Made by a program: the position numbers and the translations under genes
Notes under the pieces: generated by a model
Told to the model about the DNA's origin: nothing
The model's database searches: none
Seen by the model: the letters and a program-made list of their open reading frames with translations, nothing else
Assembly (NCBI GenBank): GCA_029204225.1
Contig: CM055095.1
Location: forward strand, 75,998,896 to 76,062,895
Direction of reading: 5' to 3'
Origin: Diphasiastrum complanatum
Lineage: Eukaryota > Streptophyta > Lycopodiopsida > Lycopodiales > Lycopodiaceae
DNA: 64,000 nucleotides
Shown: positions 1 to 45,522 of the stretch, one piece after another
Numbering within the stretch: the first letter of the stretch is position 1
How the letters are laid out: every line of letters begins with the position of its first letter

Positions 1-404
1 TTATCAAAGGAGGAAAAGCAATGTGTTTTTCTTGCAATGCCGCTGTCAGAGCAATTCTGCAGCGATTATATTTTCATGAGAAAAGTAAGCGCGTATTAAT
101 TCCTGATCGTAACCTGTGCAGGGAGATGTTGATGGCAACAAAGGATTGAGCTTTGAAGCGATGTAATCGACTTCTCGGGTTACGGAAAATCTGCAACAAA
201 ATGCAAGAGGGAGCTGATACTATCAAAACCGCATCGAAAAAGAAGTGGGTTCTGAAGGAAATTCTCATTTGCTGCAGGGTTTGATCGCAGTATATTGATC
301 ATGATCACAGGAATGCTGCTAGGCAGAGAGGAGGCTTGGTTCAAGGAATAAGGCAAGTCAATTGTGTGTTTAGACTTACAGAGGAAGAAGAAGAAGAAGA
401 AGGA
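1..404 (+). promoter_or_regulatory. 5' flank / leader of BAC2-like gene, copy 1
   Basis: This is the upstream region of the carrier gene, cut by the window edge. It ends in a run of GAA triplets just before the chosen ATG. No ATG lies in frame upstream of position 405 after the preceding stop. Compared with copy 2 it lacks 71 bases around position 151, so the two copies differ in promoter or 5' UTR structure. No TATA box can be assigned with confidence. Confidence 0.45.
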
Positions 405-2930
405 ATGGAGTTCTGGCGGGATCATTTGACATTTTCTTTGGGAAAAGACTTTCTAGCAGGTGGATTGGGTGGCATAGCAGGGGTGATCGCTGGCCATCCT
501 CTGGACACCATTCGAATCCACTTGCAGCAGCCGCAGCGGCCCTCTGCTTCTGGGCCAACTACGGCTGGAGCGGTGGTACGCCATCTGCTAGCCACCGAAG
601 GGTCGTCTGCTTTCTTCAAAGGGATGTCCTCGCCTCTTGCCACTGTCGCTATTCAGGTTGATTCTTTATCAATCTTTCAAGTCTCAATTATCAAGCATCT
701 GCTTTTCCATCACTCAGTAAATCTACTCATTAATCAAGCTCCCTGTAGCAAACTGCAGCAACTTATGACATCGGTTGTGCCTTTTTTTGGGATTATATTT
801 ACATATTAGAACAGACTCAACAATGCGATCATAAATAATTCAAGCATGCTTCCCAGACTGAAGAATGCCATTTTTTTATCAATCCTTCTACGCAAAGGAG
901 AGAAGAAGCGTGAAGCTGTATATCCTGAAAGCTAGCTCTTATGATCAACAAGATGCTGGAAGCATGCTCATCATTTGGAAGATGCTGCAAGCATTGCATC
1001 CTATTCCAAACCTTTGCATGTACAGCTTGAAATAATAGTAAAAGAATAAACTCTAATCTTGTTTAAGATCCTCTAAGGATTGCCGATTCCTATCTAGTAT
1101 CCCTGTACAGGTCGATGAAAACTGCAAGCTTAAGATCTTCACCACTAGTTAATGGTCATTGTTGCTGTGCAGGAATCATCCAACTATTGTAGTTTGCTAA
1201 ATTGGATTGAGCCACTAATGTACTCGCAGCTACAAGGAACTCCCTCGTGTGGTATCAGGCTAAAAGTTCTATTCAGAGCATCAAACCCAAAGCTTGATCG
1301 AGCAATCAGAAGTTATGAACTCATGCCTCACCAGTTCAAGAACGTGAATATATTTAGTGTATCTGGTCATTGATGTCGAGCTTTTAGTATCACATTTTGG
1401 CCTTTAGAGGAAACCATTCTGCATCAGTAAGGGTTTGTATTGCGCTAAAACTTTGTTCATAACGATCGTGCTTGCTGCGGAAACACTTCCTTCAGTCAGT
1501 TATGATATCCTAGAGAACTTCCTACCCCACCTTATTAACCTCTGTAAATCACATAGTTTAGTTCTTTCTATGTATGGTGGACCACTTTCCGTTTTCGCGA
1601 GGATTGCTTACATTGTTGAGTAGAATGAAACTGTTGCAGCCATAAGCAAACACGTGGGTGTATCATGCGTGCTTGAGTTTGGCTCGGGCAACCAGGTTTG
1701 ATTCGTGGTGATCCCATAAATACCAAAAACCACTAGCAATCACGTGTCTTGTACTTTGATCTACTGTTCTGTACGCTTCAATCAGCTTCTGGGAGAAAGT
1801 AGCTACAAGGGAGAGCAAACAGTCCATTTTCCAGATGAAATTTAAGCTTTCAGGTTTTTACGTACATGAATTATAAGCTCGGTCAATACTGTTATCTCCC
1901 TCAGCTTTAAAAATAAGCATTCCAAAATAACCTGCTATTGGGAGCCTCTTGACCCTGTGAAATCTAGTAGCGAAATGCTAGTTTTGGTTGTTATGTTTTG
2001 ATTGCCTCATGATTGGAGGAAAATTGGCTGTTGACTAAAATTTTGTGTTTACAAGAGGATTTCCATAATATATAGTTGTATGCCAAAATGTGCGAATGTT
2101 TTCAGAGTTTTACTCTACATTTCTCCGCTTGAAGTAATATCTGTACCTGAAGTTTAATGAGCTTAATACCCGGAAGCAACTCTGGCTGACTGATCCTTTG
2201 ACCTGTTGGTTGTGCTGTATAGAATGCTGTAGCATTTCAGGCGTACGCTCTCTTATCTAGAGCTTTAGCTGTTGAAAAGAGTGAGCCTTTGCCTCTTCAC
2301 AGAGTTGCAGCTGCTGGAATAGGAGCAGGTTCCTTGCAGACACTAATATTGACACCAGTAGATCTTGTCAAAATTCGCTTGCAGCTACACACGGCTCACG
2401 GCGGCGGAAGATCTCGGCCCACCATCAATTTTGATGGTCCTTGTGATGTTGCACGAGACATCATCAAGAGGGAGGGTGTGCGAGGACTGTACAGAGGTTT
2501 CAGAGTGACTGTGCTGCGAGATGCTCCTAGCCATGGTGTCTACTTTGCTGCATATGAGTATATTCGAGAGTATTTGCATCCTGGTTGTCGAAAAAATGGG
2601 GGTGAAACTGTCATGACCATGCTTACAGCAGGTGGATGTGCTGGAGCATTAAGTTGGATAGCTTGTTATCCACTGGACGTTGTAAAATCTCGCCTTCAGG
2701 CACAGGGACAGGGACGTGACAGTCGCGGGAGATACAAAGGTATCACTGATTGCATCTCGAGGAGCATCCGAGAGGAGGGAGTTTCAGCGCTCTTTCGAGG
2801 ACTTGGAACTGCTATTGCAAGAGCTTATTTGGTGAATGGAGCTATTTTTTCTGCCTACGAGATGACTTTAAGATTATTCTATTCGCAACCATCTCAGGAA
2901 ACAATGCTTGAGAACCCCACCCCCATGTAG
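405..2930 (+). CDS. BAC2: Mitochondrial basic amino-acid carrier (BAC2-like), copy 1
   Basis: This is a mitochondrial carrier (SLC25 family) spliced as 405-656 and 2223-2930, giving 319 residues. The intron (657-2222) has GT and AG ends and is phase 0 after a CAG codon. The three carrier signatures are visible: HPLDTIRIH at residues 31-39, TPVDLVKIRLQ at 128-138 and YPLDVVKSRLQ at 233-243. This is the expected three-repeat, six-helix fold with no cleaved presequence. The closest family I recognise is plant BAC2, from features such as VLRDAPSHG, REYLHPGCRK and VNGAIFSAYE. Arabidopsis BAC2 moves arginine, ornithine, lysine and related amino acids across the inner mitochondrial membrane. The start at 405 was chosen because MEFW aligns with the BAC2 N-terminus and has a purine at -3 and G at +4. 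Copy 1 has Ala273 and Leu278, where copy 2 has Val at both. I see no disabling change. Substrate is inferred from family only. Confidence 0.9.
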
Positions 2931-4120
2931 CAACAGCATCTCCATAATCACTACTCCAAGGATTACTCATATCTACTTCATCATTATTCTCTTTGCATTT
3001 TCCATTAATTAGACCTGTTATTCACTATTTAGTTGGATCTCTCTAGTGATGGCTTAATGCAATTTGAACCAGAGCTGCTTTTCTATCCATGGATGCAAGA
3101 AATGCTTCAAATTCTATGAAAGTCAGATAAAGTGGATCATGACAAATTTGGAAGACATTATTATGGCAATTTATGGTTGTTGATGGTAGTTTTAGAACCT
3201 CAAGATCCATTCGAAATTAATATGGATAGCCATTACTTGGCCTGAGCATCTGTGCATATTAGGTACCCACTTTCAACTTGGTCAGCTACATCATTAAGAG
3301 AATATAAATATAATGGTTGGATTATCATTTGACAACTTTTCTTTTTTGGTTATATTGCATGGTACAAATATTATAATTACGGACTTTCTCATGAATTAGT
3401 CCCCAATTGCAATTTTTTGCTTTGCTTTTTACCCATCTCAGGTTTAGATCTTGCTCTTTGGATAAATTCATGTTCACCATCAATTCCACTCTTTCTGTAA
3501 ACTGCCGAATGTCTATAGTCTCTAGTCCTTGATTGCACTTATTCTTCTAAGCATATGTGTACTTGAAACATAACATCTCTTTATGATACAGAAAGCCAAG
3601 TGACTCTCATATTGACAGAACAAATAATATTGTTGCGATATTATCAAAAGCAAATTGTAGCTAATCTTCTTTGCATATGTCTTCTTATAATATTGTTTTT
3701 CTCCCCCACTACAAACATGGGCAAATTGTCAGACACATACGATGAGGCCCATCTTTGGCTTCTTGGTCCTGTGTGGCAATTTTTGTGGCAATCACATGGC
3801 AATGAGCACGTGGCTCTACCACGTGTGGTAGTGCCACACCACCAAAATTTTCTACGACGACGATGAAAAGGGGACGGGAGGGGGACATGGCACAACCACA
3901 CAATTATTTGAGAGAGAAAAAGCGAGTGGAATGGACATTGGCTTTTTCCCAACATTAGTACTAGTTTTATTATTTGTGATACCAAAAGAGAGAAGAGATA
4001 TGAGAAAATTGAAAGATCAGGTGACAAATAATTAGATTAGATTTTTAACTAGATTTCATTGATAGATTACATGAATGTTAGTTGGATGTTGAATAATTTG
4101 TTTTTGATTTATTGATTTGT
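2931..4120. other. 3' flank of BAC2-like copy 1 inside the arm
   Basis: No convincing gene. The first few hundred bases are the likely 3' UTR and polyadenylation region. Around 3765-3850 there is a cluster of GTGGCA/TGCCAC words and a near-palindrome CTACCACGTGTGGTAG, repeated in inverted form in the right arm. Open frames of about 90-127 codons at 3600-4027 have no recognisable domain and run on both strands, so I treat them as chance. Confidence 0.5.
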
Positions 4121-7578: not shown

Positions 7579-8326
7579 CTACCTAGGTATTTGACGTTTG
7601 TTTCATCCAAAGTTCCAAAATTTTTCTTGAAAATCTAGATCTAGAGAGACTAGTTTGCTTCTCCCATGCTATCTTAAGCAAATTTGGATCAAGAGGGTCC
7701 ATTATCATATGGATTGGACCAAATATGGTACTATACAGATTTTCCTGCTCAGACACATGTGAAGGACAGCCCAATTCATTTTGGTGGTTCTCTTCCATGT
7801 GTGATCCAAAATTGATGCTTGATAGCTAGTTTTAAAGCTATTTGAGTTTAGTTTGTGTAGCAATTGACTTCATATTGATTGGATCTCTCAATTAAAAGTT
7901 ATAGTCAATTGAATCAAGGTGGGTAGGGCACCCAACCTGCTTGGACACTTTTTTCTTTTGACTCTATTATGCTTGTTTGATCAAAAATCTCACTTCTAGG
8001 CTTGCCAATCTTGTTTTCTTGAGATCTAGTTATCATTTTGAGGTCATTGCCACTTTCTTTCATACAATTGGATTGTATTTGAGCGATTTGTGGATTCTTG
8101 GAGTGTTTCCCACGTGCCAAAGATAGCTTGACCCAAACTTAGCCCATACTTCATCAGTTGATGTGAGATTGATCTAGATTAAGAGAGATTGGAAAAGCTA
8201 GTGAGGTCCATATCTCACTTTGTTGCACGATCTTGCATAGGAGTTGGTAGTACACCTTTAAAGGATCCTATAGTGAGAGAGAAGCAACATTTTAGTGTCT
8301 AAATCACAAGGAGTCTTCACTATTAT
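7579..8326 (+). mobile_element. Untranslated leader of family A, left copy
   Basis: About 750 bases between the primer-binding site and the gag start. It is conserved with 39015-39759 and, more weakly, with 63550-64000. No long open frame. Confidence 0.75.
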
Positions 8327-15242: not shown

Positions 15243-15886
15243 ATGTCATAGATCACCAACATTCAAGCTAAGATCACTACTATCTTGGACCCAGAAGGTT
15301 CAAACTACTTGATTTGGAAATTAAAGACTTCACTCTTGTTGAAAGGCAAAGGTCTATGGCAATGGATAGAACCAATTGAGAAGAAGCCAGAAGCTACTCT
15401 TGGCAAAGAACTTCAAGAATGGAGTTTAAAAAATGACAAAGCTATAGCAATTATTGCATCTTCAATGCATGACAATATAATGCTAGATCTTACATCAATT
15501 TCAAACGCAAAGGATTTATGGGAAGGATTTATTTCAAACGCAAAGGATTTCAAATGAAAAATGAGACTCGATCTCGTAATCAGATCATGTTTTTGGAAGA
15601 CCAATTAACTTACCTACAGTGGGATGGCAAAGACCTGAACACATTCGTGCGAAAGATAAAAGATCTATTTATTTCCTTGCAGAATTTCAGTGCAAAGAAT
15701 ATAATTTCTAAGGAGAAACAGCTTAGTTATTTTCTTCATGCCCTACACAGGTCATTCCACACAACTCGAACCTTGTTGGTGAAAGATGCGACAATGACAC
15801 TTCAAAAGGAAATAGATGGAGTGAAGGAGGAAGTAGAAGCTCGTGAACGCTATGACGACAATGGTGATTCATAAAATGCTCTATTT
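15243..15886 (+). pseudogene. Copia family B gag, truncated
   Basis: The N-terminus matches the DUF4219/UBN2 gag type: GSNYLIWKLKTSLLLKGKG, then KELQEWSLKNDKAI, then MFLEDQLTYLQWDGKD. Codon 3 is a stop here (TAG), whereas the relative at 47292 has TCG. A 19-base word, TTTCAAACGCAAAGGATTT, is duplicated near 15499 and 15533 and brings a frameshift and stop. Homology to other B copies ends at about 15886, where unrelated sequence begins. This marks either an insertion point or a deletion breakpoint. Confidence 0.85.
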
Positions 15887-16335
15887 CTTTCCTTATCAAG
15901 GGTGTTGATTAGGAAGTGACTAATATCCTTAATAGATGATTGAATAGAGGATGATGCCATAGGAGGGTCAGCAACAGAAACTTCCTCATTATCTGGGATC
16001 TGAACTAACAAGAAAAGTACGAAACCACTCTGATATTCAACCACTCGACATTTCTTGTTGCAATAAAGACACATTGAACTGCTTTTGAAAAGATCAAACA
16101 ATTTGGTGAACATTCTATCTAGTCTATGTTTGAAAGATGGGAAGAAATGAACAAGATCAGTATAATTCATGTACAAGAGTGAGCCTATGGAGATAACAGA
16201 CTTACTAAGTATATCCCTGAATCTAACATAATGTTCATAAAATACGTCAGAATTTGGTTGTGCAGTTCTTAAAACATGTAAATATGGCCTGAATAGGCTG
16301 TGGAAGTAGTCTAGATTTTCAGTAATCCCAAATTT
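15850..16335 (-). CDS. Unidentified minus-strand reading frame
   Basis: An open frame of 161 codons with no stop from 16335 down to 15850; the first Met is at 16176. I do not recognise the protein. It has a hydrophobic, aromatic N-terminal half (words such as DVFYEHYVRFRDIL and LVHFFPSFKHRLDRM), a possible zinc-binding pair CLYCNKKC, and a polar C-terminal part. The last few dozen bases overlap the truncated B gag on the other strand. It could be an exon of a broken gene, since TAA in frame precedes it and no start is obvious. It lies next to the histone-like frame on the opposite strand, with the motif-rich region between them. Confidence 0.35.
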   Translation of the reverse strand, partial: KFGITENLDYFHSLFRPYLHVLRTAQPNSDVFYEHYVRFRDILSKSVISIGSLLYMNYTDLVHFFPSFKHRLDRMFTKLFDLFKSSSMCLYCNKKCRVVEYQSGFVLFLLVQIPDNEEVSVADPPMASSSIQSSIKDISHFLINTLDKERNRAFYESPLSS

Positions 16336-16379
16336 TTAAAAAAATAAACTCAGGCCTGAATCTCATGTAGATCCTGAGG

Positions 16380-17215
16380 AAGAGGCAATGGAACTACGAC
16401 AGATATCGCACTTGTACACGAGGGAGAACAAACAAAACAAAACTAACTCTAACGATCGCACACAAGAGGGATATATATGGCAGGTAGCAACTGAATATCG
16501 CACTTGTGCGCAAGTAGGTATCATTGCAAAAAATGGAAAACAAGGCATGCGCACAAGAGCGATATGTTGTGAATTTCGAGAAAGAAAAAAATAAAAAATT
16601 AATCAGGTTTTGTGCCTTTTATACATTTTCACACCTGTGGTCAACGGTCAATGGACACGTGTTTACTTCCAATTGGACTGCAAGCACTGGCATGTGTGAG
16701 GTGACACTTGGACACGTGTGAAATGACACCAATACACGTGTCTCGTGTTCATTCGTCGGTTCAACAACACATGTCGCTCTCGCATTTGGCCGTACAAATC
16801 CCACACATGTAAAATGACAACCTGACATGTGTCGCTCTCGCATTTGGCCATACAAATCCCACACATGCGACAGGACATTCTTGCGCACGTGTGAACCGTG
16901 ATATAAAATCACAAACTTCGATGAATTTTTTTCTCTTTTTTTTGGGGTCTGCATATCGTACTTGTGCGCCTCCTTCACAATCGATATTCTGCCTACTGCC
17001 TTCCATGCGCACAAGTCCGATATTTTTGCCTACATGTCTCCTTATATCGGACTTTTCATCTCTCTTCTATACTAATCGATCTCTCTGATATTTGGCTCGC
17101 ACAGGTCCGATATACCGTACATTCTTTCCGTACATATCGGTCCTCTACGAGGGCTTCATAATCCTTCCTTGCTTATCCTAGTCGTCATGCACACGTGTGA
17201 TATCCCCTAGTACAC
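16380..17215. promoter_or_regulatory. Motif-dense, promoter-like region (CACGTG and GCACTTGTGCGC words)
   Basis: This region has two word families. One is ACACGTGT or CACGTG-like (16650-16900, again at 17190). The other is ATATCGCACTTGTGCGC-like, in both orientations, near 16400, 16495, 16545, 16950, 17008 and 17100. A 58-base period repeat with TGTCGCTCTCGCATTTGGCC lies at 16769-16867. CACGTG is the G-box/E-box core in plants. The region sits between the minus-strand frame and the histone-like frame, so it could be a shared promoter, but transposon origin is equally possible. Confidence 0.4.
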
Positions 17216-17219
17216 TTCC

Positions 17220-17618
17220 ATGGATAGGAGAAAGCAGACAAGGAGGGATTTCTTCTCTGCTGGCTCGTTTTTAGCTCCTGTAGTTGCCATTACACCTCCC
17301 GCTAGATCTAGAAGGCGCAACCGCAGCAGGTGGCTCTCTAAAATACGTAAGTATCAGAGATCAGCCACTCTATTGATTCCCAGAGCTCCATTCTACCGTG
17401 CCGTCCGAAATATAACTAGAAATGATCTTGGACAGCTTGTTAGATTCACACCCACATCTCTCTAGTGCCTTCAAGAAGCTGTTGAAGACTATATGAGTCT
17501 TTCTTTTGAAGATTTATTTGTGCTTGCTATTTATTCCAAGAGAGTCACCATAATGCCTAAGGACTTTCAGCTACTAAAGATAATGAGGGAGAGGTTTTGC
17601 AAGTTACATGTATCTTAG
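17220..17618 (+). pseudogene. Histone H3-fold protein (CENH3-like features), single exon, one internal stop
   Basis: The 133-codon frame aligns over its length with histone H3. The start MDRRKQTRR resembles the H3 tail around Lys4. The alpha-N segment is KIRKYQ (41-46), helix 1 is LLIPRAPFYRAVRNIT (51-66), helix 2 is LQEAVEDYM (84-92) with FED (96-98), and the C-terminal part is [16 protein letters not shown] (103-118). LLIPxAPF and RxIT are the plant CENH3 form; canonical H3 has LLIRKLPF. Loop 1 has the canonical H3 length rather than the longer CENH3 one. The tail lacks the usual K9/K14/K27 context. Codon 82 is TAG (17463-17465), where H3 has Ala. The absence of introns suggests a retrocopy, since plant CENH3 genes have several. 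Function would be nucleosome assembly if intact; as read it is probably a pseudogene. Family assignment is confident, subtype is not. Confidence 0.75.
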
Positions 17619-18025
17619 CCTGCTGCTCCCATACTTGTTCCTCTAGATAGGACTGATCTTCCGAAAAATGTAAGGAGGGTAGATACCACCAAATCTGTGA
17701 AGCCTAACCCGGAACCAATTGTAGATGATGCTACTCTAGATAATGTTGTAAATATAGCTACATTGATTTTGGATACCCTTGTACAAAGCCGATGTTGTAG
17801 ATAGAATTGGTACTCCTTTTTGTTTTAGACTAGAGGAACTTGACTTAAGTATAAATTATAGAGTTGTTGATTGTTTGGATCTCAAAAATAGACGGGCTTT
17901 TATCAGTGATCTTGTGATAGAGTCTGGGCTTACACTCTTGCAATATGACATCGCAAGAGATTCTTCCAATGAGTTGTTGGTGCTGAGTAACTTTTTGCTT
18001 CAGGCCTTTAAGGAGAATAACGACA
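17619..18025 (+). pseudogene. C-terminal extension of the H3-like frame, then an unidentified domain (copy 1)
   Basis: After the H3-like TAG at 17616-17618 the same frame stays open for about 60 codons to 17801, with a Pro/Asp-rich start and a hydrophobic helix-like word NVVNIATLILDTLV. From 17787 a different frame encodes a domain beginning DVVDRIGTPFCFRLEELD and continuing through CLDLKNRRA and LVIESGLTLLQYDIARDS. The nucleotide segment 17787-18025 has a same-length partner at 45004-45242. I counted 11 mismatches in 239 bases and no gaps. I do not recognise the domain. Whether it was once fused to the H3-like part, or joined by rearrangement at 17787, cannot be told here. Confidence 0.5.
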
Positions 18026-18029
18026 TGGT

Positions 18030-20757
18030 TGACTCCATAGATGTTTTCTTGTCGTCAACCTGGTTCTTGTTACCAAATTCGTGTTCAGATTTGTCACTCG
18101 AATCGTCAGACTCTTTCGAGTTTGTGTCTACAATGTTAATTTCTTCATACAAAACATCAGCTTCATCATTGCAGGCATCGAAGAATTTTTCATCATCAGC
18201 ATTCTCATAACGTTCAAAGTACTGCACTTCAATATCAGATTTATAGAAAAAAATATTCAAGGCATACAAAGATTCTTTAGATGTAAAACTGGTGTCGGAC
18301 AAAGGAGTTTCACCTTCATATTTGTCACGACTCCAGATTATGATTTGTTCTGCTGGCTTACCTTGATTATTGGTCTCACCAGTTTGAAATCTTAGCTCTC
18401 TGGATAAAGCCAAGGTCGTCCAATCAGCACAGAATAGGATGATAAACCGAGTGGTTTGATAACAATAAAATTCGTGGTGAATGGCTTGGCTTGAATGTAG
18501 ACGGTGACATCCTTCAGCTCACCAACAGGTTTTCATCATGTTGAATCAGCTAACTTGATGTTTCGTTGTGTTGGTTGAATGTCAGTCAGCCCCAGAGCAT
18601 GAGCTGTGTCTTCTGTTATTATATTTACACTAGAACCAGAGTCAATTGGCACATTTTTGATTAGGCATCATGCAATAGCAACATCAATTTCAGGTGCACC
18701 GAGATCACCTAAATCAATGGACAAAACACCAACATCTGGTAGAAAATTTTTCTTCTTCTTCTTCGTAGGCACATAAAGGCCTTTCAACTGCTTTCTGTAA
18801 TAAGTGTTATCTACCAACAGCTGTTCAAAAGTAATGTTTGGTCGAAGAGATCCGATATCAGTTACGATGTCATATTCTTTTGTCTTTGATTTTGAGGTTG
18901 GTTTATCAATAACAGCACTAGACAATTTCGTCTTCGCAATTTCTTCGTCTTCTTCCTTGAAAGCGACCACCTTCTCTGCAGGAACAGTCTTTAGTTCAGC
19001 GTCGATGATCTCCTTTGCTTCTGCTGAGATATCTTTTGCAAATAACTTCGCAGCATCACGGTCATAGTCAGGGTCATCCTTGAGATATTCTTTAGTTGTG
19101 GATTTGTTCGTCATCTTGCTAGAAGATTTTGTCTTCGCGGATTTTCTGTGCTTTGTCGAAGATTTCTGATCAGGTTTCGAGGAGCTTTTGCTTCTCGTGG
19201 TGACTTCAAAAATATTTTTCACGTCAGTCGGCCAGGATTGATCTTTAGTCATTGCCAATTTTTCTTCAATAACGTCAATTCTCTATACAATAGCATCTGT
19301 CACAGCTTTCGCTTTTGTGTCTGCGGCAGCTGGTGTTGCTACATACTGATATTTGGGCCGCGGATTCTGCGGATGAGGGCAGTCAGGATACTTGTGACCA
19401 GGTTCTCTACATTTTGAACATAATGGTACGAAACCAATTGGCTTCTGTGGTTGAGGACAGTCAGGAGAAAAATGTCCCGGCTCTCCACAGTTGTAGCAGT
19501 TGCCCGAAACTAGTTTATTCAAGGTTTGAGACTTCGCTGGTCCAACAAATTTAGGAGGATTATGTCTTCTTGGTGCGAATTTGGGTCTATCTTGCTGGGC
19601 TGATGCTGTAGTACCCGTACATAGTTAGTAGTCGCATCATTCTAAAAAATAAAAAGTACCTCCTAGGCAGGATCTTTAATGTATTTCACATTAACGAAAG
19701 TGCAGTCTTCCTTGGTGTGTCCAGATGTTCCACATTTTATACACCACATTCCTGAGTTAGAAGAAGATACCTTTGGTCTTTTATCTACAACTTTTGAGAT
19801 CTGCAATTTCAAGTCATTAAATTTTTTATTAAGGTCAGCCATATTACTTTTCCAAAGCTTTTCCACTTTGGAAGTTGATGACTTATCCTCGACAACTTTC
19901 GTGTCGTTCTTTCATTTAGTTCGTCGTTTATTCTTTTTCTCTCCTTTGTCAGCATCTGATTCTGATGAATTGCTACTTTCAGATTCCAAGCTTGAAGAAC
20001 TACTACTGGAATCTGAATCTGAATCATCATCGTTGTCATTGGAATTAGTCTTAGACTTTCGAGATTTCTTCGTTGATCGCCGCTTTCGTGCTAATTTCGA
20101 AGTCTCAAAATTTTCTACACTAGCTATAACAATTGCTAAGGATTTCATGTCCCCTTGTCTGCAGTATCGATCAATCTTTGGTGGTAGACCAGCCAAAAAC
20201 CATTCGATTTGCATATCCACGGGATATACACCGGTTAGTTTTCCTATTAGGTTTTTAACCTTACGTGTATATTTGCGAAGAGATTCTTTACTCTTCTTCT
20301 GAACATCGTTCAGTCGTCCAAGAATTCTAGATTTGTAACCTATCTCTCTGAACTGGTTCAGAAATGCATCTTTCAACAGGTACTAGGTTCCTACACGGCT
20401 TGGTTCTACCTAACTATACCAGATACGCACCTGCTTTCTTAGCAGACCAGGAAAAATTTGTAGTTTGTCTACGTCAGTTCCCTAATATTCGCATTGGCTA
20501 TTGACTCAAATTGTGAGACATAGCTATCTGCATCATCGGAGCTAGTCCCTTTAAAATAATCATATTTAATTTTAGAGATAGAAGTGAAGCGTGTAGTAGG
20601 GCCCTCCATACAGAAGCTAATTAGGAGTTCAAGTAACTGAGCAGTGATTTTGTCTAGATTTCTATGACTAATACTTTCACTCTGTCTTCGTAAAAACTCC
20701 TCTCTAAGCTTCCGATATCTTTCTAATCTCGATTCTCTATCTGACATACATTAGAGA
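18030..20757 (-). pseudogene. Ty3/gypsy gag and protease, decayed
   Basis: Read from right to left. A charged N-terminus lies at 20747-20469. The retrotransposon gag core is at 20376-19912 (AFLNQFREIGYKSRIL, then SLRKYTRKVKNLIGKL), with a Ser/Asp-rich tail. Zinc knuckles follow at about 19745 (CIKCGTSGHTKEDC) and at 19498-19380 (CYNCGEPGHFSPDC and CSKCREPGHKYPDC). A Lys/Ser-rich linker is at 19258-18668. An aspartic protease remnant is near 18650-18420 (VPIDSGSSVNIIT, then SVLIGRPWL), with two adjacent stops. The frame then continues as a linker to 18000. Reverse transcriptase and integrase are missing, because the element ends at the junction with the unidentified domain near 18030. Three zinc knuckles in two clusters is more than the usual one or two. 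Confidence 0.88.
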
Positions 20758-27918: not shown

Positions 27919-30900
27919 ACAAATCAATAAATCAAAAACAAATTATTCAACATACAACTAACATTCATGTAATCTATCAATGAAATCTAGTTAAAAATCT
28001 AATCTAATTATTTGTCACCTGATCTTTCAATTTTCTCATATCTCTTCTCTCTTTTGGTATCACAAATAATAAAACTAGTACTAATGTTGGGAAAAAGCCA
28101 ATGTCCATTCCACTCGCTTTTTCTCTCTCAAATAATTTTGTGTGGTTGTGCCATGTCCCCCTCCCGTCCCCTTTTCATCGTCGTCGTAGAAAATTTTGGT
28201 GGTGTGGCACTACCACACGTGGTAGAGCCACGTGCTCATTGCCATGTGATTGCCACAAAAATTGCCACACAGGACCAAGAAGCCAAAGATGGGCCTCATC
28301 GTATGTGTCTGGCAATTTGCCCATGTTTGTAGTGGGGGAGAAAAACAATATTATAAGAAGACATATGCAAAGAAGATTAGCTCCAATTTGCTTTTGATAA
28401 TATAGCAACAATATTATTTGTTCTGTCAATATGAAAGTCACTTGGCTTTTTGTATCATAAAGAGATGTTATGTTTCAAGTACACATATGCTTAGAAGAAT
28501 AAGTGCAATCAAGGACTAGAGACTATAGACATTCGGCAGTTCACAGAAAGAGTGGAATTGATGGTGAACATGAATTTATCCAAAGAGCAAGATCTAAACC
28601 TGAGATGGGTAAAAAGCAAAGCAAAAAATTGCAATTGGGGACTAATTCATGAGAAAGTCCGTAATTATAATATTTGTACGATGCCAATATAACCAAAAAA
28701 CAAAAGTTGTCAAATGATAATCCAACCATTATATTTATTTTCTCTTAATGATGTAGCTGACCAAGTTGAAAGTGGGTACCTAATATGCACAGATGCTCAG
28801 GCCAAGTAATGGCTATCCATATTAATTTCGAATGGATCTTGAGGTTCTAAAACTACCATCAACAACCATAAATTGCCATAATAATGTCTTCCAAATTTGT
28901 CATGATCCACTTTATCTGACTTTCATAGAATTTGAAGCATTTCTTGCATCCATGGATAGAAAAGCAGCTCTGGTTCAAATTGAATTAAGCCATCACTAGA
29001 GAGATCCAACTAAATAGTGAATAACAGGCCTAATTAATGGAAAATGCAAAGAGAATAATGATGAAGTAGATATGAGTAATCCTTGGAGTAGTGATTATGG
29101 AGATGTTGTTGCTACATGGGGGTGGGGTTCTCAAGCATTGTTTCCTGAGATGGTTGCGAATAGAATAATCTTAAAGTCATCTCGTAGGCAGAAAAAATAG
29201 CTCCATTCACCAAATAAGCTCTTGCAATAGCAGTTCCAACTCCTCGAAAGAGCACTGAAACTCCCTCCTCTCGGATGCTCCTCGAGATGCAATCAGTGAT
29301 ACCTTTGTATCTCCCGCGACTGTCACGTCCCTGTCCCTGTGCCTGAAGGCGAGATTTTACAACGTCCAGTGGATAACAAGCTATCCAACTTAATGCTCCA
29401 GCACATCCACCTGCTGTGAGCATGGTCATGACAGTTTCACCCCCATTTTTTCGACAACCAGGATGCAAATACTCTCGAATATACTCATATGCAGCAAAGT
29501 AGACACCATGGCTAGGAGCATCTCGCAGCACAGTCACTCTGAAACCTCTGTACAGTCCTCTCACACCCTCCCTCTTGATGATGTCTCGTGCAACATCACA
29601 AGGACCATCAAAATTGATGGTGGGCCGAGATCTTCCGCCGCCGTGAGCCGTGTGTAGCTGCAAGCGAATTTTGACAAGATCTACTGGTGTCAATATTAGT
29701 GTCTGCAAGGAACCTGCTCCTATTCCAGCAGCTGCAACTCTGTGAAGAGGCAAAGGCTCACTCTTTTCAACAGCTAAAGCTCTAGATAAGAGAGCGTACG
29801 CCTGAAATGCTACAGCATTCTATACAGCACAACCAACAGGTCAAAGGATCAGTCAGCCAGAGTTGCTTCCGGGTATTAAGCTCATTAAACTTCAGGTACA
29901 GATATTACTTCAAGCGGAGAAATGTAGAGTAAAACTCTGAAAACATTCGCACATTTTGGCATACAACTATATATTATGGAAATCCTCTTGTAAACACAAA
30001 CTTTTAGTCAACAGCCAATCTTCCTCCAATCATGAGGCAATCAAAACATAACAACCAAAACTAGCATTTCGCTACTAGATTTCACAGGGTCAAGAGGCTC
30101 CCAATAGCAGGTTATTTTGGAATGCTTATTTTTAAAGCTGAGGGAGATAACAGTATTGACCGAGCTTATAATTCATGTACGTAAAAACCTGAAAGCTTAA
30201 ATTTCATCTGGAAAATGGACTGTTTGCTCTCCCTTGTAGCTACTTTCTCCCAGAAGCTGATTGAAGCGTACAGAACAGTAGATCAAAGTACAAGACACGT
30301 GATTGCTAGTGGTTTTTGGTATTTATGGGATCACCACGAATCAAACCTGGTTGCCCGAGCCAAACTCAAGCACGCATGATACACCCACGTGTTTGCTTAT
30401 GGCTGCAACAGTTTCATTCTACTCAACAATGTAGCAATCCTCGCGAAAACGGAAAGTGGTCCACCATACATAGAAAGAACTAAACTATGTGATTTACAGA
30501 GGTTAATAAGGTGGGGTAGGAAGTTCTCTAGGATATCATAACTGACTGAAGGAAGTGTTTCCGCAGCAAGCACGATCGTTATGAACAAAGTTTTAGCGCA
30601 ATACAAACCCTTACTGATGCAGAATGGTTTCCTCTAAAGGCCAAAATGTGATACTAAGAGCTCGACATCAATGACCAGATACACTAAATATATTCACGTT
30701 CTTGAACTGGTGAGGCATGAGTTCATAACTTCTGATTGCTCGATCAAGCTTTGGGTTTGATGCTCTGAGTAGAACTTTTAGCCTGATACCACACGAGGGA
30801 GATCCTTGTAGCTGCGAATACATTAGTGGCTCAATCCAATTTAGCAAACTACAATAGTTGGATGATTCCTGCACAGCAACAATGACCATTAACTAGTGGT

Positions 30901-32112
30901 GAAGATCTTAAGCTTGCAGTTTTCATCGACCTGTACAGGGATACTAGATAGGAATCGGCAATCCTTAGAGGATCTTAAACAAGATTAGAGTTTATTCTTT
31001 TACTATTATTTCAAGCTGTACATGCAAAGGTTGGAATAGGATGCAATGCTTGCAGCATCTTCCAAATGATGAGCATGCTTCCAGCTTCTTGTTGATCATA
31101 AGAGCTAGCTTTCAGGATATACAGCTTCACGCTTCTTCTCTCCTTTGCGTAGAAGGATTGATGAAAAAAATGGCATTCTTCAGTCTGGGAAGCATGCTTG
31201 AATTATTTATGATCGCATTGTTGAGTCTGTTCTAATATGTAAATATAATCCCAAAAAAAGGCACAACCGATGTCATAAGTTGCTGCAGTTTGCTACAGGG
31301 AGCTTGATTAATGAGTAGATTTACTGAGTGATGGAAATGCAGATGCTTGATAATTGAGACTTGAAAGATTGATAAAGAATCAACCTGAATAGCGACAGTG
31401 GCAAGAGGCGAGGACATCCCTTTGAAGAAAGCAGACGACCCTTCGGTGGCTAGCAGATGGCGTACCACCGCTCCAGCCGTAGTTGGCCCAGAAGCAGAGG
31501 GCCGCTGCGGCTGCTGCAAGTGGATTCGAATGGTGTCCAGAGGATGGCCAGCGATCACCCCTGCTATGCCACCCAATCCACCTGCTAGAAAGTCTTTTCC
31601 CAAAGAAAATGTCAAATGATCCCGCCAGAACTCCATTCCTTCTTCTTCTTCTTCTTCCTCTGTAAGTCTAAACACACAATTGACTTGCCTTATTCCTTGA
31701 ACCAAGCCTCCTCTCTGCCTAGCAGCATTCCTGTGATCATGATCAATATACTGCGATCAAACCCTGCAGCAAATGAGAATTTCCTTCAGAACCCACTTCT
31801 TTTTCGATGCGGTTTTGATAGTATCAGCTCCCTCTTGCATTTTGTTGCAGATTTTCCGTAACCCGAGAAGTCGATTACATCGCTTCAAACTATTAGTCAA
31901 GATGAACTTCCAAAACACATGGGATGCAGAAAAAGGGTACACCGTAGAGCACCTGGCGCAGCTCAATCCTTTGTTGCCATCAACATCTCCCTGCACAGGT
32001 CACGATCAGGAATTAATACGCGCTTACTTTTCTCATGAAAATATAATCGCTGCAGAATTGCTCTGACAGCGGCATTGCAAGAAAAACACATTGCTTTTCC
32101 TCCTTTTGATAA
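27919..32112. repeat. Right arm of large inverted duplication
   Basis: Reverse complement of 1-4120. It may extend past 32112, but the left partner lies outside the window. It contains a 71-base segment near 31890-31960 that is absent from the left arm. Confidence 0.93.
29112..31636 (-). CDS. BAC2: Mitochondrial basic amino-acid carrier (BAC2-like), copy 2
   Basis: Spliced on the minus strand as 31636-31385 and 29819-29112, giving 319 residues. The intron is 29820-31384, one base shorter than in copy 1, and keeps GT and AG ends. Retention of the intron shows that this is a DNA-level duplicate, not a retrocopy. The three carrier signatures (PLDTIRIH, PVDLVKIR, PLDVVKSR) are intact. Exon 1 encodes the same protein as copy 1; exon 2 differs at residues 273 (Val here, Ala in copy 1) and 278 (Val here, Leu in copy 1). 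Both lie in the matrix-side part of the third repeat. From memory of Arabidopsis BAC2, Val is expected at 273 and Leu at 278, so each copy has one unusual residue. Role as for copy 1: exchange of arginine, ornithine and lysine across the inner mitochondrial membrane, inferred from family. Confidence 0.9.
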
Positions 32113-44922: not shown

Positions 44923-45316
44923 ACAAGAAGCAAATGTAGAACAACTGAGAAAGATAGATCTTGATTCTACCAACGATGATTATCTTAAATTTGAGAAGGA
45001 CATAGCCGATGTTGTAGATAGAATTGGTACTCCTTTTTGTTTTAGACTAGAGAAACTTGACTTTAGTATAGATTATAGAGTTGTTGATTGTTTGGATCTC
45101 AAAAATAGACGGGCTTCTATCATTGATCTTGTAATAGAGTCTGGGCTTACACTCTTGCAATATGACATTGCAAGAGATTCATCCAATGAGTTGCTGGTGC
45201 TGAGTAGCTTTTTGCTTCAGGCCTTCAAGGAGAATAACGACACATTGTCACAGTGTCTGACTAGTGGATTCACACCAGCAACAAACTACCTGCTTGTCCC
45301 TTATCATACCAAGTAA
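44918..45316 (+). CDS. Unidentified domain downstream of B pol (copy 2)
   Basis: An open frame of 132 codons with no stop, bounded by TAG at 44915-44917 and a stop at 45316. It starts DKQEANVEQLRKIDLDSTND and continues YLKFEKDIADVVDRIGTPFC, then through YRVVDCLDLKNRRAS and IESGLTLLQYDIARDSSNEL. Bases 45004-45242 match 17787-18025 without gaps. Of the 11 differences, about six change the amino acid, so there is no clear sign of selection on the protein. I do not recognise the family. Here the frame follows RNase H; at the left it follows the histone-like frame. There is no ATG at the frame start (the first Met is at 45092), so it may have been read as part of a polyprotein or be a captured exon. 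Confidence 0.45.
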   Translation, partial: DKQEANVEQLRKIDLDSTNDDYLKFEKDIADVVDRIGTPFCFRLEKLDFSIDYRVVDCLDLKNRRASIIDLVIESGLTLLQYDIARDSSNELLVLSSFLLQAFKENNDTLSQCLTSGFTPATNYLLVPYHTK

Positions 45317-45522
45317 GATATATTAAATGCTTCTTGATGTTTAATGTTTTATCATTGGCATTATCAATGGAAATAGTTCTCAAAATTGCAGCTAAAGAAA
45401 TTTCAATCTTATTTTGCAACAATTGCTAAAATGAATTTTCGCAATTTTTGCCCAAAAAGTCTAGCAAAAAATATCAGCCAAACAAATTGCAGAAACAAAT
45501 TGTGAACATAAATCCGCAAAAG

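What the first reader, a model, noticed from the sequence alone, without database searches (positions are those of the whole stretch)
17220..17618. Intronless histone H3-fold frame with CENH3-like helix 1 among retroelements
Seen: a 133-codon frame matching H3 from tail to C-terminus, with LLIPRAPFYRAVRNIT and [12 protein letters not shown], and one internal TAG. Known: plant CENH3 differs from H3 in just this helix-1 segment (LLIPxAPF versus LLIRKLPF) and is encoded by several exons. Inference: a retrocopy of a CENH3 or divergent H3, or a captured H3 in a mobile element. The mixture of CENH3-like helix 1 with H3-length loop 1 and TIMPKD is unusual.
Basis: partly seen in the sequence, partly recalled or inferred. 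Interest (0 to 1): 0.82.

Follow-up and report, generated by a model that had tools for sequence, protein, structure and literature searches.

The report
Transposon histone H3 lacking lysine 9
A plant-like genome is full of "jumping gene" elements that carry their own version of the DNA-packaging protein histone H3, which keeps the first eight residues of the normal protein's tail but has lost the very next one, the lysine that cells mark to switch such elements off.

Summary
Window 17220-17618 encodes a real histone H3 fold (PF00125, 79.9 bits) with two in-frame TAGs. It is not supported as a CENH3 retrocopy. It is the H3 gene of a decayed copy (15887-18025) of a ~9.3 kb multi-gene DNA transposon with terminal inverted repeats. 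Two divergent families (A, B) share four genes: transposase-like, X, Y and H3. The element is abundant in this 1.74 Gb genome (thousands of first-look candidates; only the best 40-150 were scored). Between family-A lineages the H3 fold is under purifying selection (dN/dS 0.10-0.14). Six of eight H3-bearing families keep the whole H3 N-terminus ARTKQTAR, the other two most of it; then similarity stops. The K9 position is not K in 21 of 21 TE tails read. Genome-wide, 514 frames start MARTKQTAR; 26 continue with K9, and 22 of those have a host-type H3 match. Family A also has an eight-copy 16-bp motif cluster beside H3. Best explanation: a transposon-encoded, K9-less H3 that builds chromatin resistant to H3K9me/CHG silencing. 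The transposon gene is shown; the anti-silencing role is inferred. Closest precedents: fungal hAT elements with H3-like genes and VANC anti-silencing transposons.

The parts
15887..18025 (+). Remnant of a family-A multi-gene TIR DNA transposon; both ends truncated
   Evidence: blastn to 7 other A copies: 78-80% over 1.8-1.9 kb (0.9 kb in L026) plus a 220-243 bp block at 85-87%
15883..16446 (-). 5' part of gene Y (function unknown), transcribed divergently from H3
   Evidence: tblastn to E025 and L018 Y frames, 72-79%
16403..17203 (.). Divergent promoter region with 8 copies of a 16-bp motif (CGCACAAGTGCGATAT, up to 3 mismatches), partly as inverted pairs about 55 bp apart
   Evidence: 8 matches in the whole window, all here; 0.25 expected, none of 100 shuffles reached 8; also 8 and 7 copies upstream of H3 in elements E025 and E013
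17220..17327 (+). H3-like N-terminal tail MDRRKQTRRD...; aligns with H3 MARTKQTARK (6 of the first 9), one lysine in 36 residues
17247..17249 (+). Codon at the position of H3 lysine 9: GAT (Asp)
17328..17597 (+). Histone H3 fold (this decayed copy has lost H113 and R129)
   Evidence: PF00125 79.9 bits; dN/dS 0.10-0.14 against other A lineages
17463..17465 (+). In-frame TAG inside the fold
17616..17618 (+). Second TAG; frame open again to 17777 as linker
17783..18072 (+). Part of the C-terminal extension, in another frame
   Evidence: tblastn 68-71% to extension residues 229-325 (17788-18072); DNA match 17783-18025
44972..45418 (+). Second fragment of a family-A extension, inside sequence that looks copia-like by eye
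   Evidence: 81-82% protein (44972-45313), 86% DNA (44975-45418)

Best explanation
SHOWN: this is the H3 gene of a multi-gene TIR DNA transposon; the window copy is dead; the H3 gene is present in both families A and B together with three other shared genes, and in family A it was kept by purifying selection between lineages. INFERRED: the element-encoded H3 pairs with host H4 and is deposited on element chromatin, possibly guided by an element protein that binds the 16-bp motif cluster beside the gene. It keeps the ARTKQTAR terminus (K4 kept in all families but C) but has no lysine 9 and almost no other tail lysines. Such nucleosomes could carry K4-type marks but could not be given H3K9me2, so the H3K9me2-CHG methylation loop (KYP/CMT3 in Arabidopsis, recalled) could not lock onto the element. 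Where K9 is replaced by leucine (families D and E) it might also trap K9 methyltransferases; that is speculation.
For: Families A and B share all four genes by protein similarity of the pieces: transposase-like 21-64%, H3 44-52%, Y 30-38%, X 27-44%; both begin CATTAG. H3 dN/dS between A lineages: fold 0.10-0.14, tail 0.20-0.28, linker 0.52-0.64; within subfamily A2 fold 0.70 and tail 0.93, as after insertion. Tail identity to host H3 is 9/9 (Met + 8) in six of eight families, then 0-4 of the next 20; K9 is replaced in all eight. K9 was absent in 21 of 21 TE tails read (of 33 TE loci held; 12 tails were missing or unreadable) and present in 11 of 11 host H3 tails. 488 of 514 MARTKQTAR starts lack K9. 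Tetramer residues H113, R116, D123 and R129 (roles recalled) are kept in most copies of families A, B and C. Copies carry CG and CHG C>T decay: 0.055 and 0.068 against 0.015 at CHH. A1 and A2 elements are mostly 90-97% identical except for a cassette of Y start, motif region and H3 tail/fold at 78-89%.
Against: No expression, protein or chromatin data exist here. Old copies were evidently methylated, so any protection does not last. Family C has also lost K4. The 488 starts are not independent: about 50 of the 100 listed lie in one array on contig C3, and only some were checked for a fold; one of four taken from the list (L048) has none in frame. Once K9 was lost in an ancestor its absence could simply persist, although D, R, A, L and P beside an unchanged octapeptide argues against drift alone. 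One K9 start (C1:40570870) has a TE-type fold match. Transposase-like pieces (0.17-0.59), X (0.48-0.66) and the extension (0.44) show weaker constraint between A1 and A2. That all TE H3s share one ancestor has low support (83/66). The window copy and a few others have lost one or two tetramer residues. The transposase-like gene reaches no Pfam cut-off and no target-site duplication was established.
Confidence: 0.55

Rival explanations
1. Passenger capture: a host H3 sequence was picked up by a transposon and amplified with no function, as Pack-type or transduplicated genes often are.
For: Several fetched copies carry stops or frameshifts, and dN/dS within subfamily A2 is near 1. Amplified, inactivated H3 capture is known in fungi (PMC6710886).
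Against: dN/dS 0.10-0.19 between lineages, the same gene set in two divergent families, and a conserved octapeptide in 24 synonymous spellings among the 100 places listed need selection.
Confidence: 0.1
2. Architectural or targeting role: the H3-fold protein is a transposition cofactor, or directs insertion to particular chromatin (for example centromeres), and the missing K9 is incidental.
For: CENH3-like helix 1 in families A-D; weak sub-threshold CENP-T and CENP-S similarity; long fused extensions.
Against: Family-A copies are spread evenly along chromosomes (117 of the 150 scored hits lay on contigs of known length; KS p=0.09). The stop of H3 similarity just before K9 is unexplained.
Confidence: 0.25
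3. CENH3 retrocopy: an intronless copy of the host CENH3.
For: Helix-1 resemblance; host H3.3-type genes have introns.
Against: Multi-gene TIR element; H3-type MARTKQTAR tail in several families; trees do not put A and C-F with plant CENH3.
Confidence: 0.05
4. H3-tail mimic: the octapeptide mainly serves to bind or occupy H3K4 readers or K9 methyltransferases as a decoy away from nucleosomes.
For: In families B and B2 tail and fold are separated by about 300-325 residues (L041, L040); K9 is replaced by L in D and E.
Against: The fold is the most constrained part in family A, which suggests that nucleosome or H4 contacts matter.
Confidence: 0.15

Closest known systems
H3L hAT transposons of Pyrenophora tritici-repentis (PMC3538342; section 20, part 1 of 2, and term passages read) and H3-carrying hAT of Pseudocercospora fijiensis and relatives (PMC6710886; abstract and Results part 1 of 2 read)
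   Same: TIR DNA transposon carrying an intronless H3-like gene; many copies; in P. tritici-repentis the protein matches neither H3 nor CenH3 completely.
   Different: Fungi; hAT transposase (8-bp TSD reported in P. fijiensis); 26 near-identical H3L copies, or 784 H3-like sequences in RIP-inactivated repeats; no selection between lineages and no K9 pattern in what I read. Here: plant-like genome, a transposase-like gene without Pfam match above cut-off, a four-gene set shared by divergent families, purifying selection, K9 lost in all eight families.
VANDAL / Hiun elements with VANC anti-silencing protein (PMC5735166; abstract and Introduction read)
   Same: Multi-gene plant DNA transposon; clustered short motifs in non-coding DNA; escape from silencing.
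   Different: VANC is a sequence-specific DNA-binding protein; no histone. X and Y here reach no Pfam cut-off; VANC itself was not compared.
Plant CENH3 (sequences recalled)
   Same: LLIP-APF helix 1; W in loop 1 in families D, E, F and G; long tails.
   Different: TE-borne, very high copy, H3-type octapeptide tail in most families, separate in trees except for the unresolved B.
Viral histones (PMC9145170; passages from a term search read)
   Same: Selfish DNA coding for a histone.
   Different: Viruses, other histone types; no relation shown.

Membership tests
Core histone H3 (PF00125) | Profile match above the curated cut-off | tested here: met
   Window 79.9 bits; one copy each of A, C, D, E, B2 69.8-98.2 bits; cut-off 26.4
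Core histone H3 (PF00125) | Canonical tail with K9 and further lysines | tested here: not met
   K9 absent in 21 of 21 TE tails read; 0-1 lysine in residues 10-30 of nine copies against 5 in host
CENH3 | Groups with CENH3 in a tree | tested here: inconclusive
   A, C-F apart from plant CENH3; B next to CENH3 without support (37.5/36); host CENH3 not found
CENH3 | Centromere localisation | not testable with these tools
   needs antibody or ChIP; A copies are evenly spread
TIR DNA transposon | Terminal inverted repeats | tested here: met
   A: 43 bp at 84% (E025) and 35 bp at 91% (E014), the two copies with both ends held; B: 37 bp at 97% in L020, whose right end may belong to another copy
TIR DNA transposon | Target-site duplication | tested here: inconclusive
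   E025 flanks show no 8-bp repeat; E014 unclear; two more 3' ends missed
TIR DNA transposon | Recognisable transposase | tested here: inconclusive
   Conserved gene in A and B, no Pfam match above cut-off
hAT H3L element | hAT transposase domain | tested here: not met
   No hAT match among the 10 A and 8 B frame pieces scanned; frames are broken, so weak matches could be missed
Processed retrocopy | Isolated spliced copy of a host gene | tested here: not met
   Homology to other copies extends 1.3 kb upstream into gene Y and the shared promoter
VANC-type anti-silencing element | VANC-related protein | tested here: inconclusive
   No Pfam match above cut-off for X or Y; VANC was not compared

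The most novel reading that the evidence does not exclude
A so far undescribed superfamily of multi-gene plant DNA transposons whose defining accessory gene is a histone H3 cut off from silencing: it retains the ARTKQTAR terminus read and written by the K4 machinery, has discarded K9 in every family seen (D, R, A, L, P), and is deposited on the element as silencing-proof chromatin, directed by a co-inherited motif cluster.
Probability: 0.4. Interest if true: 0.95.

Novelty: new variant of a known kind. Interest (0 to 1): 0.85.

Why it matters
Hosts silence transposons largely through H3K9 methylation (recalled). An element lineage that has kept its own H3 for long enough to diverge into several families, in every family seen without that lysine, would be a direct counter-move: supplying the nucleosome instead of attacking the enzyme. 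It would make the question of how transposons beat chromatin silencing testable in one plant, and it offers natural K9-less H3s with different substitutions as tools. It also warns that H3 and CENH3 gene counts in such genomes can be heavily contaminated by transposon copies.

Tried and rejected
CENH3 retrocopy: not supported, as above. Host CENH3: a TIMxKDxQLAR pattern gave 24 places; of four loci then read, three are intron-bearing H3.3-type genes and one (L035) a broken H3 piece. A rice CENH3 protein query gave 13 canonical H3 rows (68-69%) and otherwise rows of at most 57% among the 150 scored of 5623 candidates; the 8 fetched from these were all TE copies. CENH3 stays unlocated. Domestication of the contig-C3 array of MARTKQTAR-L H3 frames: unlikely, because rows with 95-96% DNA identity have 86-92% protein identity, which is near-neutral, although 71 of 88 array rows against 34 of 62 dispersed rows have no stop (counted by eye). 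hAT origin: no support. Motif cluster in family B: only a different inverted-repeat cluster was seen; a first k-mer scan was too strict and found nothing even in A. Transposase family: best Pfam hit among A pieces was TnsA-like N-terminal on a piece of X, E=0.003, 18.5 bits against a cut-off of 26.5, not followed. Target-site duplication: not settled. Structure prediction: unavailable. A count of the family-A tail with and without K9 was asked for but did not complete. No plant report of a histone-carrying transposon was among the titles and abstracts listed in ten paper searches (lists capped, 74 and 110 empty), and a 2026 review of plant TE gene capture has no occurrence of 'histone' (PMC13317346, term search only).

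Full report
1. The observation. The 133-codon frame at 17220 is a true H3 relative: Pfam Histone 79.9 bits, E=2.3e-22; solved relatives are H3.3C, H3 and Cnp1. It has TAGs at codons 82 and 133. In relatives without these stops the frame runs on through a linker with a proline run to a C-terminal extension (331-337 aa frames in L015, L018, L025, L026).

2. It is one of a great many. A six-frame PF00125 search of the window's genome (1.74 Gb, 5176 contigs) gave 6325 first-look candidates, of which 150 were scored (153 matches): 13 listed rows are canonical H3 at 164-165 bits, three are part-length matches at H3.3-type exons, and the other listed rows are divergent matches at 95-110 bits, found on all of C1-C23. 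The family-A extension alone gave 4269 candidates; all 150 scored were 92-99% identical to the query. Element ends gave 1489 and 1232 candidates, 40 scored each. Candidates are not confirmed copies.

3. It is a multi-gene DNA transposon. From I fetched 20 of the divergent copies, about 10 kb each: 7 family A (the window's kind), 12 family B and 1 family C (L017, with a second A-like H3 fragment at 7929). A copies share one unit at 88-95% DNA identity. With upstream flanks added for four copies, both ends were found in two: E025 (about 9.3 kb) and E014 (with an insert and an internal deletion), with imperfect terminal inverted repeats beginning CATTAGAGGA. B begins CATTAGGGCCC, with 37-bp inverted ends in L020. 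A codes for a transposase-like gene (+), Y (-), H3 (+) and X (-). B, a different DNA family, codes for relatives of all four in the same order but with Y and H3 in other orientations. None of transposase-like, X or Y reaches a Pfam cut-off, so 'transposase' rests on size, conservation and position. E025 appears by eye to lie inside a copia-like reading frame, and no 8-bp duplication flanks it; two further attempts missed the 3' ends.

4. The H3 gene is selected. Pairwise dN/dS over 132 codons between A1 (L013, L015), A2 (L011, L014, L018, L025, L026) and the window copy is 0.10-0.19 with dS 0.45-0.76; between A2 copies it is 0.51-1.43, and 0.40 for the A1 pair. By region between lineages: fold 0.10-0.14, tail 0.20-0.28, linker 0.52-0.64, extension 0.44 (A1-A2 only); within A2: fold 0.70, tail 0.93, extension 0.65, linker 3.6 on very few synonymous changes. 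So elements decay after insertion while the transmitted lineages kept the protein. For comparison, A1-A2 values are 0.17-0.59 for transposase-like pieces, 0.26 for Y and 0.48-0.66 for X, where dS is low (0.06-0.16). A1 and A2 differ little in those parts but strongly over a cassette of Y start, promoter and H3 tail/fold (L018 3532-5530: 78-89%, against 90-97% in all but two windows elsewhere, 86 and 89%), which points to recombination exchanging this cassette between lineages.

5. The tail. A second set of 8 loci chosen from fold matches gave D (L037, L038, L039, L044), B2 (L040) and more B (L041-L043); 4 loci chosen from the tail pattern gave E (L045), G (L046), F (L047) and L048, which has the tail but no fold in the same frame. 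B, B2, D, E, F and G begin MARTKQTAR exactly as host H3 (L039 has one change, MARTKQTTR); C begins MARTESTAR and A MDRRKQTRR. Right after it the similarity ends (0-4 of the next 20 residues), and the residue at K9 is D (A, B), R (B2, G), L (D, E), A (C) or P (F). In all, 21 of 21 TE tails that could be read, out of 33 TE loci held, lack K9 (L013 has G there; L048 is included), and 11 of 11 host H3 and H3.3-type tails have it. Genome-wide the MARTKQTAR start occurs 514 times (reversed-pattern control 0), in 24 synonymous spellings among the 100 places listed, about 50 of which lie in one array on C3; with a lysine codon next, 26. Of these 26, 22 lie at genes with a host-type C-terminal match, two more have host spelling only, and two share one spelling, of which one (C1:40570870) has a TE-type fold match. 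So 488 of 514 lack K9; they are not independent, and that all are followed by a fold was not checked.

6. The fold. Helix 1 is LLIPRAPF in A, C and D, FLIPRAPF in B, altered in E, F and G, and like plant CENH3 in A-D. Loop 1 is RF in A and C, RW in D-G, RV or KV in B, RI in B2. Residues that join two H3 in the tetramer (H113, R116, D123, R129; roles recalled) are kept in most A, B and C copies, so pairing with H4 is plausible; the window copy has lost H113 and R129, and L014 and L025 have changed D123. In trees {A,C} and {D,E,F} separate from H3 and CENH3 (96-98% bootstrap), B is next to them without resolution; in the smaller tree TE proteins together against H3 plus CENH3 had only 83/66. One capture followed by divergence, or more than one capture, are both possible.

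7. Cis features. Eight copies of CGCACAAGTGCGATAT (up to 3 mismatches) lie at 16403-17203 and nowhere else in the window; 0.25 are expected. E025 and E013 have 8 and 7 upstream of H3. This recalls VANC target motifs (PMC5735166), but which protein binds is unknown.

8. Silencing footprints. Among five A2 copies over 4.1 kb, C>T changes are 0.055 at CG, 0.068 at CHG and 0.015 at CHH, as expected if the elements were methylated at CG and CHG. In plants CHG methylation depends on H3K9me2 (recalled), which is the pathway a K9-less H3 would block.

9. Mechanism and judgement. Shown: transposon gene, selection in family A, tail pattern. Inferred: incorporation, K9me avoidance, guidance by the motif. 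Alternatives are given with their odds. Limits: one genome, unnamed (about 23 large contigs; a homosporous lycophyte is a guess from memory), no expression data, no structure prediction, transposase family and TSD unsettled, few lineages in the dN/dS test, and choice of copies from best-scoring lists.

Noticed in passing
G000 C3:18.5-21.8 Mb and 29.9-30.15 Mb, C14:49.43-49.89 Mb (L045): 88 of 150 scored matches (of 6046 candidates) to the E-family H3 form local arrays (80 on C3, 8 on C14) of short frames beginning, where seen, MARTKQTAR-L; in the one read (L045) the frame is followed by a tandem repeat of 209-bp period. DNA 95-96% against protein 86-92% identity suggests near-neutral amplification.
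   Followed up: partly
window 44972-45418: A fragment of the family-A C-terminal extension sits inside copia-like sequence (by eye), as if the retroelement had picked it up or been invaded.
   Followed up: partly
window 6-4120 and 27919-32106: A near-perfect inverted duplication (about 4 kb arms, 96-100% complementary) with roughly 24 kb between the arms that includes the H3 remnant.
   Followed up: no
L017:4840-8831: A family-C H3 gene and a short A-like element with internal deletion and its own H3 fragment lie side by side.
   Followed up: partly
L043: A rearranged B copy whose frame fuses the transposase-like N-terminal part to the H3 fold (391 aa open).
   Followed up: no
L033, L034 (C20:32.9-33.0 Mb): Intron-bearing H3.3-type host genes with unusual tails (A15T and Q19E in L033, K14E and Q19E in L034) and TIMTKDMQL or TIMPKDMQL ends; possible host H3 variants.
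   Followed up: no
L024:5229-5380: Family B has its own inverted-repeat cluster between the H3 and Y genes.
   Followed up: no
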